The notes beneath the pieces were generated by a model. The model was given only the letters and a program-made list of their open reading frames with translations, was not told where the DNA came from and made no database searches. Positions 14,360 through 19,699 of a stretch of DNA of 35,578 nucleotides are shown piece by piece. The DNA is taken from positions 1 through 35,578 of the forward strand of contig JADZGF010000014.1 of NCBI GenBank assembly GCA_020854065.1. The letters are read 5' to 3'. Numbering within the stretch: position 1 is the stretch's first letter; each line of letters starts with the position of its first letter. Made by a program: the position numbers and the translations under genes. Source of the stretch: Candidatus Nomurabacteria bacterium (GTDB taxonomy: Bacteria > Patescibacteriota > Minisyncoccia > Phycocordibacterales > SBAW01).

Positions 14360-15217
14360 ATGAATAGAGTTACGTTAACTGCTAAACCTACAGAAGGGTA
14401 TTCTTTGTTAGATTCTGGACAGGAGGAAAAGCTCGAGCGCTTTGGAGATGTACTTTTAGCACGTCCAGATCCTCAAGCTCTATGGCCAAAGCATCTTGAA
14501 GAGGGGGAGTGGACCAAAGCCCAAGGTCGCTATGAGCGTAAAAACAAAGAGGGGGTGTGGCATGCGCAGAATTTGCCTGAAGAATGGCAGATACAATATG
14601 GCGGCTTCACTTTTCTCATTAAACCGACATCGTTTAAACATACGGGGCTATTTCCCGAGCAAATCTCCAATTGGGAGTGGATTCAGGAAAATATTACACT
14701 TGGAGCAAAAGTATTAAATCTTTTTGGATACACCGGAGGTGCGAGTCTTGCTGCCGCTGCTGCAGGAGCAGAGGTAACTCACGTTGATGCATCGAAGACT
14801 GCCGTATCCTGGGCAAGCGAAAACGCAAAGTTAAGCGGGTTAGGGGAGAAGCCTATCCGTTGGATAGTCGAAGATGCTATTTCATACTTAGAGCGCGAGG
14901 TTAAGCGTGGCAACAAATACGATGCGGTCATTATGGATCCGCCGGCATTTGGTCATGGTCCCAAGGACGAATTGTGGAAATTTGAGGAACACTTCCTTAC
15001 GCTTATGCGTTTAGTGGAGGAATTATTGAGCGACAAACCACTGTTTGTGCTTATTAACGGCTACGCAGCAGGCTACTCGCCACTTGCGTTTGCGTATAAC
15101 CTAGAGTCGCTTACAAAAAAATATGGCGGAAATGTCGAATATGGCGACTTGGCTATAGCAGAGGAGGGAAGTGAACGCGTTCTACCCTGTGGAATCTTTG
15201 CGCGGTGGAGTGTTTAG
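14360..15217 (+). CDS. Class I SAM-dependent methyltransferase, RlmI/RlmK-like
   Basis: GAKVLNLFGYTGGASLAAAAAGAEVTHVDASKTAVSWASENAKLSGL...YDAVIMDPPAFGHG. Confidence 0.9.
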   Translation: MNRVTLTAKPTEGYSLLDSGQEEKLERFGDVLLARPDPQALWPKHLEEGEWTKAQGRYERKNKEGVWHAQNLPEEWQIQYGGFTFLIKPTSFKHTGLFPEQISNWEWIQENITLGAKVLNLFGYTGGASLAAAAAGAEVTHVDASKTAVSWASENAKLSGLGEKPIRWIVEDAISYLEREVKRGNKYDAVIMDPPAFGHGPKDELWKFEEHFLTLMRLVEELLSDKPLFVLINGYAAGYSPLAFAYNLESLTKKYGGNVEYGDLAIAEEGSERVLPCGIFARWSV

Positions 15218-15948
15218 ATCTTCTGCCAAACCATTTCAAAAATTTCTTTTACTGTTTTAGCAACTTCAGCATTTTCGAGCACTATTCCCTGTAGATTTTT
15301 ATAATCGTGGATACGGACGCAATTTCCTATCACGTCCATAGCGATTTGGGAGGAAAATTGCTGGTGGGGGACTGTTTTAAATTTCGCTCCTATCTGCGCA
15401 TCACGCTTGCGGTATTCTTCAAGTGATGCATGTTCGGGTGCTATGCCACGCATGGTTATGTTTATCTTGTGCCGTTTTTCGTTCCACTCTGTAAAATAAT
15501 CGGTCAGCTCTTTCGGCAAATGCTCACTCGTCGCATAAAATCCGACTACCTCTTTGTTTTTGTTTTCTGCAAATCCGTATTCCATAGCCTGCTCCAGACC
15601 GGCTATTCCTTCGAAATGCGTCGTTTTGACTCGAGACGTGTTGTTGGCGAACTCTCTCATGAGTTCGGGCAGTAAATTTTCCGCCTCAGCGATTCCTCGT
15701 TTGACTTCGTGTACGAAATCGTCAGGAGATTGAGCGCGGAACATTTGTTTCTTAGACCCGGGCATCTTTAATACCAACCCGCGTTTACGGAGATCCTCCA
15801 AAACCACGTAGGTAGTAGGTCGTTTAAGGCCTGCGGCACGGGCTACAGCGTTTGCTGACCCTTGCCCAAGGGTGAGTAGACCTAAGTAAACTCGGCTTTC
15901 TTTGTCGCTTAACCCTAGTTTTTGGAGGGTATTGGCTTGGTTTGGCAT
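15214..15948 (-). CDS. TrmB-family transcriptional regulator
   Basis: N-terminal wHTH LGLSDKESRVYLGLLTLGQGSANAVARAAGLKRPTTYVVLEDLRKRGLV; effector-like C-terminal domain. Confidence 0.88.
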   Translation of the reverse strand: MPNQANTLQKLGLSDKESRVYLGLLTLGQGSANAVARAAGLKRPTTYVVLEDLRKRGLVLKMPGSKKQMFRAQSPDDFVHEVKRGIAEAENLLPELMREFANNTSRVKTTHFEGIAGLEQAMEYGFAENKNKEVVGFYATSEHLPKELTDYFTEWNEKRHKINITMRGIAPEHASLEEYRKRDAQIGAKFKTVPHQQFSSQIAMDVIGNCVRIHDYKNLQGIVLENAEVAKTVKEIFEMVWQKI

Positions 15949-15954
15949 GGCTCT

Positions 15955-15983
15955 AGTATAGAGCCAGTCTCTATTTCTGTCAA
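15955..15983 (-). promoter_or_regulatory. Promoter of TrmB-like gene, leaderless configuration, with inverted repeats
   Basis: TTGACA (15983-15978) N17 TATACT (15960-15955) N6 ATG; ATAGAG-ccagt-CTCTAT and TGTCA-ataaaaa-TGACA overlap it. Confidence 0.65.
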
Positions 15984-16060
15984 TAAAAATGACAACAATC
16001 TATATATGTCTTTAATATATTGATAAATAAGGCTAATTTGGACACTGTCTAGGCAGTATT

Positions 16061-16090
16061 TTGGACTACTCTTGCTAAATCACTCATAAT
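16061..16090 (+). promoter_or_regulatory. Candidate promoter of the radical SAM/micropeptide island
   Basis: TTGGAC (16061-16066) N18 CATAAT (16085-16090), about 50-nt leader with AGGAGG before ATG. Confidence 0.5.
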
Positions 16091-16146
16091 ATTGCGCAGT
16101 AATTCTGTACTTTGTAACCCCCCTCAACCAGCCCCAGGAGGCCACC

Positions 16147-17310
16147 ATGACCTATTCCTCGAGACTGCTGGCCGATCCCGCCTTTATGGCGATCGATGCC
16201 TGGCGCCGGGCCACGATCCTGGGAGAGAGTCGCGAGGAACTTATCCAGGCGCTCCTGCGCCGGGAAGTCCCTCCCCTCATTTCCTGGATCGTACGCGGAG
16301 GTTGCGCGGTGCAGTGTGAACACTGCATCTTCCCGTTCGAGGGACCGAAAGGTCACTCAGACAGGATCAGCACGGAGATAATGCTCTCCTTGTTGGCGCA
16401 GCTTTCGGGACGAGGGAATCTGGTACACGAAGGGAGGCAACTCCTGCCGTGGCAGATACCCGTCCTCGCAGCGGCGAAGCGTGCAGGCCATGGCGTGTCG
16501 GTCATTAACAATGGCCAATACGCTACGCCGAGCATGCTCGCGCTTTGTGACCACCATGGTCTGAAAGTCGACGCACTCGATGTGTCGATCGACGGGCCGG
16601 AAGCGGTACACAATCTGCAGCGCAACCATGCGAACGCATGGCGTTGGGCGATGAATGGTCTGGCAGAGGGTCGGCGCATTGCCGACAAGCTCACCAGTCT
16701 CTTCACCCTAACGGCCCTTAACTCGGAGCATGTGGCGGAAACCGGCAAGATTGCCGGCGACCTCGTCGATGAATGGCACCTGACAACCATGTCAGTGCGG
16801 CCAGGCATCGAACACATGCTGCCGACGCGTTCACAATTGAGCGCGGCATTGGACCAACTTGCGGGCCTGCGGCTTGGGATTCCGGTATATCTCCGGAGTT
16901 ACTCGCTGCAAGGCTTCGTTGCACTTTGCGAGGTAATTGGGAAAGAGGCAGTGCGTAAGGCGCTGCGGGAGGCACAAGTCATTGATATGACACCCAGCAA
17001 TGGGATTGTGCTGAACGTAGAGGGTATCAACCTCTATTTCTACCCCAAGAGCCTCCAGTGCAACGAGACGCTGGTTGTTGATGCTGATGGGTGGTGGCGA
17101 CTTCCTTTTAGTGTGGCGCACACTTTGGATGAACTCCAATGTGGGCAAAGCACCGAAGGGGACGACCTGTCTCACTTCAGTATCGCACCAGTGTCCGAGA
17201 AGTTGGATGTGGCTGAAGTCTATGCGCGCTCCACCGTAGGGTGGTGGCAGGCGGTAGGCCGAAAGTCCTTCAATGAGGAACGGGTTGCTGTGGAGCGACT
17301 CCTGGCATGA
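16147..17310 (+). CDS. Radical SAM protein
   Basis: CX3CX2C motif GGCAVQCEHCIFPFEG, followed by a TIM-barrel-compatible sequence (VINNGQYATPSML; ALDVSIDGPEAVH); AGGAGG SD at about 16136. Confidence 0.88.
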   Translation: MTYSSRLLADPAFMAIDAWRRATILGESREELIQALLRREVPPLISWIVRGGCAVQCEHCIFPFEGPKGHSDRISTEIMLSLLAQLSGRGNLVHEGRQLLPWQIPVLAAAKRAGHGVSVINNGQYATPSMLALCDHHGLKVDALDVSIDGPEAVHNLQRNHANAWRWAMNGLAEGRRIADKLTSLFTLTALNSEHVAETGKIAGDLVDEWHLTTMSVRPGIEHMLPTRSQLSAALDQLAGLRLGIPVYLRSYSLQGFVALCEVIGKEAVRKALREAQVIDMTPSNGIVLNVEGINLYFYPKSLQCNETLVVDADGWWRLPFSVAHTLDELQCGQSTEGDDLSHFSIAPVSEKLDVAEVYARSTVGWWQAVGRKSFNEERVAVERLLA

Positions 17311-17365
17311 AAACCAGGCGGAGCCGACTGACACTCAACGAACGTTGCGAAACGTGCGTTGGATT

Positions 17366-17398
17366 CGGAGCGGGTTGATATCCCGCTTGGCACCAGAA
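17366..17398 (+). repeat. Island hairpin repeat, copy A
   Basis: CGGAGCGGGTTGATATCCCGCTTGGCACCAGAA; stem AGCGGG/CCCGCT; extended structured region continues to about 17530. Confidence 0.85.
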
Positions 17399-17593
17399 GC
17401 TCTGAGTACTCGCAAGAGGCAGTAGGAGCAAAACTATCAACCGACTGGGGGGAAGCAATTTCTCCCCTCTGTTGAGAATTTGATTCGCCAGCCGGCGGAG
17501 TTCGAATTTTCATCGAGACAAGTTCTTTTACAGCATGAACACGGCTTGGCAATCCCGCTAAGCTGCCCTCTAACCAAAGAAAGGAGGTGAAAC

Positions 17594-17650
17594 ATGGCAG
17601 CTGCGAACACTGGCTCGACCGGTGTGGGCAAGCCTCGTCCTCCCAAGTAG
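17594..17650 (+). CDS. Micropeptide 1: MAAANTGSTGVGKPRPPK
   Basis: AAAGGAGGTGA SD at about 17580-17590; 14/18 aa identical to the peptide at 17754; conserved codons that differ do so synonymously. Confidence 0.82.
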   Translation: MAAANTGSTGVGKPRPPK

Positions 17651-17680
17651 GGGGCGGAGTGAGCCATCCTGAGTAAGACT

Positions 17681-17709
17681 CGGAGCTTGGGTAGAGCTTG
17701 GCAACAGAA
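17681..17709 (+). repeat. Island hairpin repeat, divergent copy D
   Basis: CGGAGCttgggtagaGCTTGGCAACAGAA: same flanks, replaced hairpin interior. Confidence 0.7.
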
Positions 17710-17753
17710 TCTGCCCACTGTTCTTGCAACAAATCTGAAAGGAGGTGATTGCG

Positions 17754-17810
17754 ATGTCGGGAGCCAATACTGGCTCGACTGGGGTGACACAACCCCGTCC
17801 GCCGAAGTAA
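17754..17810 (+). CDS. Micropeptide 2: MSGANTGSTGVTQPRPPK
   Basis: AAAGGAGGTGA SD at about 17738-17748; paralog of peptide 1; stop codon inside a GCCGAAG-taa-GGGCTTAAGCCCTTCGGC stem-loop. Confidence 0.82.
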   Translation: MSGANTGSTGVTQPRPPK

Positions 17811-17842
17811 GGGCTTAAGCCCTTCGGCACTTGTCTCACAAA

Positions 17843-17875
17843 CGGAGCGGGCTGATATCCCGCTTGGCAACAGAA
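17843..17875 (+). repeat. Island hairpin repeat, copy B
   Basis: CGGAGCGGGCTGATATCCCGCTTGGCAACAGAA; extended structured region to about 17960. Confidence 0.85.
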
Positions 17876-18005
17876 ACAAAACTATCACCACTGGGAGAAA
17901 GTAATTTCTCCCCTCTATTGAGAATCGGATGTATCGGATTCTCATTGAGATTCGTTCTTTCAAACTTAAACAGGCCATACCGGCCAACAGCCTTAGGAGG
18001 GCAGA

Positions 18006-18542
18006 ATGGTCAACTTGATTATCGTCGTTGAGGACAAGCGGGAAGAACAAGAGCGGGCCCTCGAGGCAATCAAGCGCTCCCTTGGCGATGTCGAGGAAAT
18101 AAGCGAAGAGAAAGGCGGGAGAGTAAATCTCTTCCGTGACTGCCCGAGCCCGATGGTGGCACTGAAATCGCCAGACGGTGGTGGCACACTGATACACTTC
18201 GCTGCAACTCTTGAAATAGCGGAGATACGCCTGAACTCTGTGCGCAGTTTCGCCAACTGCCTGCAGAAGGTTGGTGTCATAACCGACCTGATGTTCCCCG
18301 CAAAATGCGGTGGAAAGGAGGAGCCAAATGGGCTTGGCATTATTGCCAAGTGCATTGAGGCAAAGTTGCGCGTAGTGGTCTGTAGCGATATCGACCATCA
18401 CGATGTCGACTGGCTGCGCCCTATCTTCCCAATCTTGGGGAAGGCGCATCCGACTGGCGATGTTCCTGTCATTCTGGACAAGAAAGACTGGGACAAAGCC
18501 GTCGCCCTCCTTGCTGACACACCTGTGTCGGCAGCAGCCTGA
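18006..18542 (+). CDS. Divergent response-regulator receiver-like protein
   Basis: IIVVEDKREEQERALEAI (acidic pocket-like), GVITDLMFP (phospho-Asp-like), RVVVCSDID, VILDKKDWDKAVALL (Lys-like); AGGAGG SD 5 nt before ATG. Confidence 0.6.
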   Translation: MVNLIIVVEDKREEQERALEAIKRSLGDVEEISEEKGGRVNLFRDCPSPMVALKSPDGGGTLIHFAATLEIAEIRLNSVRSFANCLQKVGVITDLMFPAKCGGKEEPNGLGIIAKCIEAKLRVVVCSDIDHHDVDWLRPIFPILGKAHPTGDVPVILDKKDWDKAVALLADTPVSAAA

Positions 18543-18548
18543 CGAGTT

Positions 18549-18581
18549 CGGAGCGGGCTGATATACCGCTTGGCAACAGAA
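18549..18581 (+). repeat. Island hairpin repeat, copy C
   Basis: CGGAGCGGGCTGATATACCGCTTGGCAACAGAA, then ACAAAACTATCACCG shared with copy B. Confidence 0.85.
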
Positions 18582-18600
18582 ACAAAACTATCACCGCACA

Positions 18601-18631
18601 CAACCGTCGCTACCAAGCGGCGGTTTTCTTT
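18601..18631 (+). terminator. Intrinsic terminator closing the radical SAM island
   Basis: ACCGTCGC-taccaa-GCGGCGGT followed by TTTCTTTTT. Confidence 0.75.
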
Positions 18632-19699
18632 TTAATCTTGTAATGCGTCGACGAGTTTTTGAGTAAGTGCAGGAGCAACATCTTCTTCAAACGTTATTGC
18701 TTTGCTTTGTATATTGCCGGTTAAGAGATCAGCAAGTGATCCAAGACCTGCCGCTGCAAGAGAACGCTCGATATGCGCTATTGATATTGCACGCAGATCG
18801 CGTTCACCAGTGGTGCCTTTTAATACCGCTGTACTAATGAGCCCGGCTAGAGTGCCATCCATACGCACTGCAGCGCCGCCTGAAGAGCCTGACTGCGATA
18901 TAATGGATCCTCCGACGGAAAAGAGATCAGTATGCGAGGTGTCGTCATATGTATATTTTTGTAATACCGAAACAAATGCGGAAGTAGGGTAGAGGTTTTC
19001 AGCAATAACTTCTCCTGAGAGAAAGCCTGCAGGATATGCTGCAAGCAGCATTCGTTCGCCACTTTTAGGAGTCGCTGCGCTATAGGGGAGATAGGGCAGG
19101 GTATTGTTTGTTTTTGCTATTAAAAGTGCAAAGTCATTCTCTCCAGTACCTTTTGCGTTATCCGCATCAATTTGATTTGCGTTTTTCTCTACCCACTCAG
19201 GCGATACATACAAAACCTGTATGTCGTAGAGAGGTACTGCAGGTGAGCCGCCGCGGATAGTGCAGCTAATGTTGCCTTTGCGCGGATAATCGCGCAGCAA
19301 AATGTATTGCGCGATATGTGCATTGGTAAGTACAACGCCGCGTGGATCTATGACTACACCGCTACCTGAGAGTGGCTTGAACTCTCCGCCTGCCTTCGTG
19401 GTGCAGAAAATATTAACAAGGGCTGCGCGGGCGCGGGTGTTAAGTTCGGTGTCGATCAAACCATCAGTCTGAGGTTCTGGTTCTTCTTCAGTAGTATCTG
19501 TGGGAGTGGAAAGAGAGACGTCTGCCTCTACAACTGTTTCTTGCTCTTCGGGGGCTGCAGTGGGGAATTGCTCTGTGGCCACGGGAGTGACAGAAGTTTC
19601 TGTGTGGGTTGGGGCTGTAGCGGGGAGTGTTGTTAAAAGCCCAACCGAAAGTGCGGCTGCAGTAAGCACCATAAGTACTAGTGCGTGTAGGAGCGACAT
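18632..19699 (-). CDS. Trypsin-like (S1/HtrA-type) serine protease, membrane anchored
   Basis: Catalytic His (VLTNAHIAQ), Asp (ENDFALLIA), Ser (ISQSGSSGGAAV); N-terminal TM. Confidence 0.88.
   Translation of the reverse strand: MSLLHALVLMVLTAAALSVGLLTTLPATAPTHTETSVTPVATEQFPTAAPEEQETVVEADVSLSTPTDTTEEEPEPQTDGLIDTELNTRARAALVNIFCTTKAGGEFKPLSGSGVVIDPRGVVLTNAHIAQYILLRDYPRKGNISCTIRGGSPAVPLYDIQVLYVSPEWVEKNANQIDADNAKGTGENDFALLIAKTNNTLPYLPYSAATPKSGERMLLAAYPAGFLSGEVIAENLYPTSAFVSVLQKYTYDDTSHTDLFSVGGSIISQSGSSGGAAVRMDGTLAGLISTAVLKGTTGERDLRAISIAHIERSLAAAGLGSLADLLTGNIQSKAITFEEDVAPALTQKLVDALQD

What the first reader, a model, noticed from the sequence alone, without database searches (positions are those of the whole stretch)
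17366..18581. Every ORF in the island is followed by one CGGAGC...GCTTGGCAaCAGAA hairpin repeat
Copies: A 17366 (after the radical SAM gene), D 17681 (after peptide 1), B 17843 (after peptide 2), C 18549 (after the receiver-like ORF). Flanks are conserved while the hairpin interior varies: AGCGGG-ttgatat-CCCGCT, AGCGG-gctgatata-CCGCT, and the shorter AGC-ttgggtaga-GCT. The one-per-gene spacing suggests an mRNA processing or stabilising element, or a cassette-boundary recombination site. It does not match the integron attC consensus as I know it.
Basis: partly seen in the sequence, partly recalled or inferred. Interest (0 to 1): 0.82.

Follow-up and report, generated by a model that had tools for sequence, protein, structure and literature searches.

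The report
Phage-type RNA knot ends each gene
A small RNA pseudoknot, the same kind that sits at the 3' end of the coding piece of split tmRNA and after the stop codons of many phage genes, follows every gene of a peptide-making island in a tiny-genome bacterium, and it probably protects or defines the 3' ends of the messages.

Summary
Four copies, one 6-55 nt behind each of the island's four genes, all sense strand, and no other copy in the 620-kb genome. They are not simple hairpins. The letters between GGAGC and GCTTGG pair with letters just after GGCAACAGAA, making an H-type pseudoknot. Across 38 copies 99.7% of pairs form and both stems covary. In a second set fetched without fixing stem 1, perfect 4-bp stem 1 occurs in 47 of 57 copies (11.8 when shuffled). 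It is the same element as the 3'-terminal pseudoknot of alphaproteobacterial two-piece tmRNA (Rfam RF01849). A freestanding mRNA form, with a 5' box UGANUAAGANUCGG, occurs in well over 100 viral contigs. There about 60% of copies lie within 60 nt behind a same-strand ORF (8% for random positions, 3-4% on the opposite strand), often before a terminator. A related bacterial locus (L010) repeats the layout and another genome (G230) carries one copy. Most likely it is a structured mRNA 3' end that blocks 3'-exonucleases, giving each cistron its own stable end. This function is inferred, not shown. A cassette recombination site is unlikely. The pseudoknot is known inside tmRNA; I found no description of the freestanding mRNA form.

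The parts
17670..17717 (+). Pseudoknot D (canonical form), after peptide 1: 5' box TGAGTAAGACT, S1 GAGC 17683-17686 / GCTT 17696-17699, S2 TGGGTAGA 17688-17695 / TCTGCCCA 17710-17717, loop 3 GGCAACAGAA 17700-17709
   Evidence: 8-bp S2 at offset 0,0; 57.7 bits, E 1e-13
17366..17442 (+). Pseudoknot A (extended S1 GAGCGGG/CCCGCTT), after the rSAM gene; loop TTGATA 17375-17380 pairs with TATCAA 17435-17440; loop 3 carries an inserted hairpin 17399-17429
   Evidence: Sequence; folds; the same arrangement with different letters in L010 at 7200. The covariance model itself scores A weakly (9.2 bits, E 1.3)
17843..17887 (+). Pseudoknot B (extended S1), after peptide 2; S2 TGATA 17853-17857 / TATCA 17883-17887; loop 3 GGCAACAGAAACAAAAC
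   Evidence: 20.5 bits, E 1e-3
18549..18593 (+). Pseudoknot C (extended S1), after the 178-aa ORF; S2 TGATA 18559-18563 / TATCA 18589-18593
   Evidence: 17.6 bits, E 7e-3
18602..18633 (+). Intrinsic terminator just behind pseudoknot C (AACCGTCGC...GCGGCGGTT then T-run)
   Evidence: Sequence and fold
16147..17310 (+). Radical SAM protein, 387 aa (CxxxCxxC at 53-60)
   Evidence: PF04055 E 1.5e-4, below the curated cut-off; weak matches to many rSAM peptide maturases; homologues in eight other genomes or bins, seven of them with a readable neighbouring AN[TA]GS-type peptide
17594..17650 (+). Peptide 1, MAAANTGSTGVGKPRPPK, with Shine-Dalgarno AAAGGAGGTGA
17754..17810 (+). Peptide 2, MSGANTGSTGVTQPRPPK, with Shine-Dalgarno AAAGGAGGTGA
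18006..18542 (+). 178-aa ORF of unknown function (variable cargo; replaced by other small proteins in L010 and L017)
17447..17532 (+). Leader element (R2) before peptide 1: hairpin, long stem with outer TCT/AGA, then boxA-like GTTCTTTTACA 17522-17532
17893..17964 (+). Leader element (R2) before the 178-aa ORF: hairpin GGGAGAAA/TTTCTCCC, stem TCT..GAGAATC/GATTCTC..AGA, then boxA-like GTTCTTTCAAA 17954-17964
   Evidence: the own rRNA leader also has a hairpin followed directly by boxA
15214..15948 (-). Divergent TrmB-family transcriptional regulator; TrmB-type genes also lie divergently next to the system in L009, L010, L016, L018, L022 and upstream of a pseudoknot-tailed gene in L156
   Evidence: PF01978 E 7e-16; 44% identity to L010, 25% to L156; for the others reading

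Best explanation
Each repeat encodes, in the mRNA, an H-type pseudoknot of about 45 nt: box UGANUAAGANU - CG - S1 - (loop 1) - S2 - S1' - GGCAACAGAA - S2'. SHOWN by comparative sequence: both stems; the near-invariant 10-nt loop 3 (the A-rich strand that would lie in the minor groove of S1); sense orientation just behind stop codons; the same structure and letters as the 3'-terminal pseudoknot of the coding piece of alphaproteobacterial two-piece tmRNA. INFERRED: it works as a structured 3' end. Transcripts made or cut downstream are trimmed by 3'-5' exonucleases back to the pseudoknot and stop there, so each cistron, above all the two 18-aa peptide cistrons that presumably must be expressed far above the enzyme, keeps its own stable 3' end. 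The two stop codons in two frames in the 5' box would keep ribosomes from running into the knot and opening it. In the island the knots alternate with 5' hairpin leaders that end in a boxA-like sequence (R2), so the operon reads as gene units with a protected 3' end and a structured, possibly Nus-factor-binding, 5' leader.
For: S2: in 62 non-redundant copies the mean best stem is 6.45 bp, against 3.96 (largest 4.34 of 300) when partners are swapped. Structure finder: 96 hits at score >=22 in 897 kb, 0 in the reversed control. A2 (38 copies): 99.7% of cells paired, covariation 0.767 against 0.185 +/- 0.021; sliding by 1 gives 40-48% paired; all five S2 pairs and two S1 pairs show double changes. 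Second set with S1 not fixed by the search pattern: S1 4 bp perfect in 47 of 57 against 11.8 (largest 20) shuffled; S1>=3 and S2>=5 in 38 of 57 against 6.3. Placement: 58% and 60% of copies within 60 nt behind a same-strand SD-bearing ORF, against 8% at random and 3-4% on the opposite strand. Terminator-like site within 120 nt downstream in 21 of 71 copies against 6.8% at random. One per gene, each followed by a terminator, in L189; three consecutive genes in L132. RF01849 consensus ends GgGGUUCGGAGgcACCuGGCAACAGAAacCucC. Mature coding pieces are 213 nt in C. crescentus (PMC1168896) and 214 nt, end-mapped and very stable, in S. meliloti (PMC2873474), which fits an end just behind this knot. 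PMC3968760 assigns PK2-PK4 of tmRNA to folding and maturation rather than tagging. In the longer-S1 copies loop 3 is longer too (16-17 instead of 10 nt), as a real pseudoknot needs.
Against: No transcript ends, half-lives or structure probing are available. The invariance of loop 3 is stronger than a mere mechanical barrier would need and suggests recognition by a protein or by the ribosome. Copies A, B and C are variants scored only weakly by the covariance model. One L010 gene (first membrane peptide) and most L017 genes lack a clear copy. Most phage copies have no terminator in view; in the first set the excess was small (3 of 36 against 4%). R2/boxA rests on nine leaders and a generic consensus (86 against 72.9, largest of 500 shuffles 80) and does not match the genome's own rRNA boxA variant better than chance (68 of 500 shuffles reach it).
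Confidence: 0.6

Rival explanations
1. A binding site for a specific trans-acting factor (for example ribosomal protein S1, SmpB, a Nus factor or an RNA chaperone), or a transcription/termination helper: the knot would recruit a protein through the invariant GGCAACAGAA strand, and stability would be secondary.
For: Loop 3 is almost invariant across phages, tmRNA and small bacterial genomes; protein S1 is reported to contact tmRNA pseudoknots (PMC3968760); terminators are enriched downstream in the second set.
Against: An A-rich loop 3 packed into the S1 minor groove can by itself explain much of the conservation. No partner is known, and the element occurs across very different genomes.
Confidence: 0.22
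2. A recoding or translation-termination element: the knot just behind the stop codon would cause readthrough or frameshifting, or help ribosome release.
For: Knots close behind stop codons do act this way in some viruses (own knowledge); many copies start 4 or 8 nt after the stop; tmRNA carries the same knot after its tag stop codon.
Against: Distances range from 4 to more than 60 nt. The box itself has stops in two frames (UGANUAAGA, 52 of 71 copies), which would abort extension. No conserved downstream reading frame was noticed.
Confidence: 0.07
3. A cassette-boundary recombination site, or a repeated 3' module through which cargo genes are swapped: constant RNA flanks with variable genes between them.
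For: Cargo genes differ between L010, L017, L156 and the window while flanking elements persist. Copies B and C are 98% identical over 47 nt behind unrelated genes, so a module was duplicated or converted.
Against: RNA-level signature (G-U in 36 of 38 at the base of S1), sense strand, a 3'-UTR position in unrelated phages and in tmRNA, no integron-like consensus. Homologous recombination between repeats would be a by-product, not the function.
Confidence: 0.07
4. A chance or purely local repeat family (for example a REP-like repeat) without function.
For: Only four genomic copies, clustered.
Against: Same structure in well over 100 viral contigs, two other small bacterial genomes and tmRNA, with covariation and placement far above controls.
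Confidence: 0.02

Closest known systems
3'-terminal pseudoknot of the coding piece of alphaproteobacterial two-piece tmRNA (Rfam RF01849 alpha_tmRNA; PMC3985003 counts PK1 and PK2 in the coding piece; PMC1168896 discusses the Caulobacter knots under pk2 and pk3)
   Same: Same topology, loop 3 GGCAACAGAA, same spacing, follows a stop codon, ends the RNA. A permissive Rfam search of phage locus L132 hits RF01849 exactly at two of the mRNA copies (E 0.07 and 0.085).
   Different: Here it follows ordinary protein genes with Shine-Dalgarno and start codon, in several copies per locus. No tRNA-like domain or tag reading frame was found at the island. The mRNA form has the 5' box UGANUAAGANUCG (AGANTCG in 25 of 36 against 1 of 25 in the tmRNA form). 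Several window and L010 copies carry the box or parts of it.
H-type pseudoknots with an A-rich loop 3 (frameshift and readthrough knots, SAM-II class riboswitches)
   Same: General fold with an A-rich strand in the minor groove (own knowledge).
   Different: Position at gene 3' ends, no ligand-linked gene class, different conserved letters.
3'-stabilising stem-loops and REP-type intercistronic hairpins of bacterial operons
   Same: Works like: segmental stability of cistrons in one operon (inferred).
   Different: Pseudoknot rather than hairpin, with an invariant single-stranded core, shared with phages and tmRNA.
boxA-type Nus-factor (rRNA antitermination) leaders (for R2)
   Same: Hairpin followed directly by GTTCTTTNAAA-like letters, as in the rRNA leader of the same genome (TTGTTCCGTTC); NusB is encoded. 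boxA elements upstream of protein genes are known from enterobacteria (PMC5725501).
   Different: Precedes peptide or cargo genes; letters closer to the generic boxA than to the genome's own rRNA boxA; binding untested.

Membership tests
Two-piece tmRNA (RF01849 / RF04321) | tRNA-like acceptor domain with CCA and tag reading frame | tested here: not met
   Rfam search of 15900-19000 finds no tmRNA; ARAGORN reports none in the window or L010; the genome's own tmRNA matches the standard one-piece family on another contig
tmRNA 3'-terminal pseudoknot (structural element) | H-type knot with S1, S2 and loop 3 GGCAACAGAA behind a stop codon | tested here: met
   D and two L010 copies canonical; A, B, C with longer S1 and longer loop 3
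mRNA-type 3' pseudoknot of phages (class described here) | 5' box UGANUAAGANUCG | tested here: inconclusive
   Full box in D (TGAGTAAGACTCGG) and L010 copy 1; partial in A, C, L010 copies 2 and 3; absent in B
mRNA-type 3' pseudoknot of phages (class described here) | Sense strand, just downstream of an ORF stop, not inside coding sequence | tested here: met
   4 of 4 in the window, 4 in L010, 1 in L156; general test
Integron attC site | R/L core sites and an integron integrase | tested here: inconclusive
   No attC-like core seen on reading and no recombinase among the island ORFs tested; the genome was not searched for integron integrases
boxA antitermination leader (R2) | boxA-like letters behind a hairpin; NusB present | tested here: met
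   Generic consensus sum 86 against 72.9 (0 of 500 shuffles reach it); NusB E 8e-32
boxA antitermination leader (R2) | NusB/S10 binding and antitermination activity | not testable with these tools
   Needs binding or reporter assays

The most novel reading that the evidence does not exclude
A widespread, apparently undescribed class of phage and bacterial mRNA 3'-end element: a compact pseudoknot with a double-stop 5' box that gives individual short cistrons a defined, exonuclease-proof 3' end. It is shared with two-piece tmRNA, so the tmRNA coding piece and ordinary mRNAs use the same 3' module, and small-genome bacteria have taken it up as a per-gene tail in a modified-peptide operon.
Probability: 0.5. 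Interest if true: 0.85.

Novelty: new variant of a known kind. Interest (0 to 1): 0.7.

Why it matters
Bacterial mRNAs are thought to end mostly in terminator hairpins. A conserved pseudoknot tail, reused gene by gene and shared between phages and tmRNA, would be a new type of bacterial 3' UTR with a simple, testable job. It would also explain why the coding piece of two-piece tmRNA ends in this knot, and it offers a compact sequence signature for finding short phage genes and peptide operons that gene callers overlook.

Tried and rejected
Plain hairpin model: rejected, the loop pairs downstream in nearly all well-preserved copies. Known Rfam family at the island: none at E up to 5 except an insignificant sRNA match. 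Dispersed repeat of the genus or phylum: the exact pattern is absent from 383 other genomes of the phylum, and the covariance model finds it in 4 of 327, two of them strongly. Own tmRNA as the source: it is one-piece and lacks GGCAACAGAA. DNA or protein relatives of phage loci carrying the knot in GenBank phages: three searches, none found. A short-query search did find the knot in an unannotated permuted tmRNA of Caulobacter phage phiCbK and in Rhizobium phage RHph_I1_18. Further relatives of the rSAM in the family of G734: none; in viral contigs: none. Literature: no paper found for a freestanding form, but most subscription journals are not in the library.

Full report
WHAT WAS CLAIMED AND WHAT IS THERE. 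The four copies are real and correctly placed. They follow the radical SAM gene, two 18-aa peptide genes and a 178-aa ORF, 55, 30, 32 and 6 nt behind the stop codons. The core GCTTGGCANCAGAA occurs four times in the 620-kb genome, always here and always on the coding strand. The island is GC-rich (0.52-0.60 against about 0.44-0.49 in most of the flanks), which suggests recent arrival.

NOT A HAIRPIN BUT A PSEUDOKNOT. An exact-pattern scan of IMG/VR returned 75 viral contigs. Lining up their flanks showed that the letters between GGAGC and GCTTGG are complementary to the letters right after GGCAACAGAA. In 62 non-redundant copies the mean best stem is 6.45 bp against 3.96 when partners are swapped. 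A structure finder gives 96 hits at score 22 or more in 897 kb and none in the reversed sequence. On a 38-sequence alignment 99.7% of the cells of both stems pair, the covariation score is 0.767 against 0.185 +/- 0.021, and sliding the partner by one column destroys it. A second viral set was fetched with only the 5' box and loop 3 fixed. In it stem 1 pairs perfectly over 4 bp in 47 of 57 copies against 11.8 when shuffled, with many different stems (GAGG/CCUU, GCGC/GCGU, GGGC/GCCU, GACU/AGUU). In the window, copy D is the canonical form (8-bp S2). Copies A, B and C have stem 1 lengthened (GAGCGGG/CCCGCUU in A and B, a near-copy in C). In B and C loop 3 is lengthened to GGCAACAGAAACAAAAC, and their loop UGAUA pairs with UAUCA. 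Copy A pairs UUGAUA with UAUCAA across a loop 3 that holds an extra hairpin. The related locus L010 does the same with other letters (GAGUAGU/ACUACUU, UGAUGG/CCAUCA). For A-C the S2 stem rests on sequence reading, and the covariance model itself scores these copies weakly.

SAME KNOT AS IN TWO-PIECE tmRNA. ARAGORN finds tmRNAs in 24 of the 75 loci, 22 of them permuted; in those I read, the knot lies right behind the tag stop codon. The Rfam alpha_tmRNA consensus ends in GgGGUUCGGAGgcACCuGGCAACAGAAacCucC, which can fold in the same way. Cultured examples are an unannotated permuted tmRNA of Caulobacter phage phiCbK and one in Rhizobium phage RHph_I1_18. The mature coding piece is 213 nt in C. 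crescentus (PMC1168896) and 214 nt, end-mapped and highly stable, in S. meliloti (PMC2873474). Counted from the start of the coding piece, the Rfam model ends after about 208 nt, just behind the knot, so the knot is very probably the 3' end of a known stable RNA. No tmRNA was found at the island, and the genome's own tmRNA is a one-piece gene without this loop.

A FREESTANDING mRNA FORM. The other viral copies follow ordinary short genes. Of 36 non-redundant copies, 58% start within 60 nt behind a same-strand ORF with a Shine-Dalgarno sequence, against 8% for random positions and 2.8% for the opposite strand; none lies inside a same-strand ORF of 100 aa or more. (The window and L010 copies are among the 36 and count as misses there, because their peptide genes are below the 30-aa limit.) The second set gives 60%, 8% and 4%. 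Terminator-like sites lie within 120 nt downstream in 21 of 71 copies of that set against 6.8% at random; the first set shows only 3 of 36. This form has its own 5' box: AGANTCG in 25 of 36 copies against 1 of 25 tmRNA copies, and UGANUAAGA in 52 of 71 (only AAGANTCGG was fixed by that search). The box holds stop codons in two frames. In L189 three successive small genes each run gene, box, knot, intrinsic terminator. In L132 three successive short genes each end in a knot.

RELATED BACTERIAL LOCI. The radical SAM gene has relatives in about 1% or less of the genomes sampled from the order, class and phylum. Where the neighbourhood could be read they have short neighbouring peptides with an AN[TA]GS-type motif and usually a divergent TrmB-family regulator. 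Knots occur in the window, in L010 (four copies behind five genes) and, degenerate, in L017; the other loci lack them. One more genome (G230, L156) has a TrmB-family gene, a 187-aa gene with a signal-like start and a knot, but no radical SAM gene beside it. Cargo thus varies while the RNA tail stays. That the group is Patescibacteria is my inference from genome sizes.

THE OTHER REPEAT. Between knots and next genes lies a second element (R2): a strong hairpin, a second stem with outer CUCU/AGAG-type pairs, then letters like boxA (GTTCTTTNAAA). Nine leaders from four loci sum to 86 matches against 72.9 for shuffles (largest 80). The rRNA leader of this genome and its close relatives also has a hairpin directly followed by a boxA (TTGTTCCGTTC), and NusB is encoded. 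R2 does not resemble the genome's own boxA letters better than chance (68 of 500 shuffles reach the observed sum). I take R2 as a possible antitermination leader, not as shown.

MECHANISM. Best reading: the knot is a structured 3' end. Shown by sequence: structure, orientation, place, sharing with the tmRNA 3' end. Inferred: that it stops 3'-5' exonucleases and gives each cistron its own stable end; that the double-stop box keeps ribosomes out of the knot; that this lets the two tiny peptide cistrons outlast the enzyme cistron. The near-invariant loop 3 leaves room for a protein partner, which is the main rival. Readthrough and recombination are disfavoured by the double stops, the variable distance, the G-U pair and the strand rule.

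NOVELTY AND LIMITS. The knot is known inside tmRNA. I found no account of the free mRNA form in Rfam or in the papers held, but that library lacks most subscription journals. No experiment was available. I therefore call it a new variant of a known kind.

Noticed in passing
window 16147-17810; L010, L016, L017, L018, L019, L022, L023: A sporadic radical SAM / short-peptide system in these small genomes: peptides of about 18-44 aa with an AN[TA]GS-type motif and mostly a basic, proline-rich tail, usually with a divergent TrmB-family regulator. The two window peptides, tested as one joined sequence, had no Pfam or NCBIfam match; looks like an unrecognised modified-peptide (RiPP) family.
   Followed up: partly
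window 15978-15997; L009 about 650; L016 about 4790; L156 about 3930: Inverted repeat of the type TGTCA-N6-7-TGACA between the TrmB-family gene and the cargo operon in four loci; likely operator.
   Followed up: no
L152 1159-1526 (NC_019405.1, Caulobacter phage phiCbK): Unannotated permuted tmRNA in phiCbK (RF04321, 71 bits), tag ending in AIAA, followed by the same pseudoknot.
   Followed up: partly
L087 4595-5025; L152 164-650: GOLLD RNA lies within about 1-1.5 kb of the pseudoknot in two phage loci.
   Followed up: no
L010 5540-5602; L017 1842-1929: The first L010 peptide has no ATG, GTG or TTG at its expected start (only ATA), and the second L017 peptide has a changed N-terminus (MICDSISNSGSAG); possibly decaying copies.
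   Followed up: no
L009: A relative of the radical SAM gene sits in a bin labelled Micrarchaeota; more likely a mis-binned contig of the same bacterial group.
   Followed up: no
window 17320-17365; L010 7160-7200: A second conserved hairpin with a GNRA-like loop (AACGAACGTTGCGAAACGTGCGTT) directly before the knot behind the radical SAM gene in both loci.
   Followed up: no
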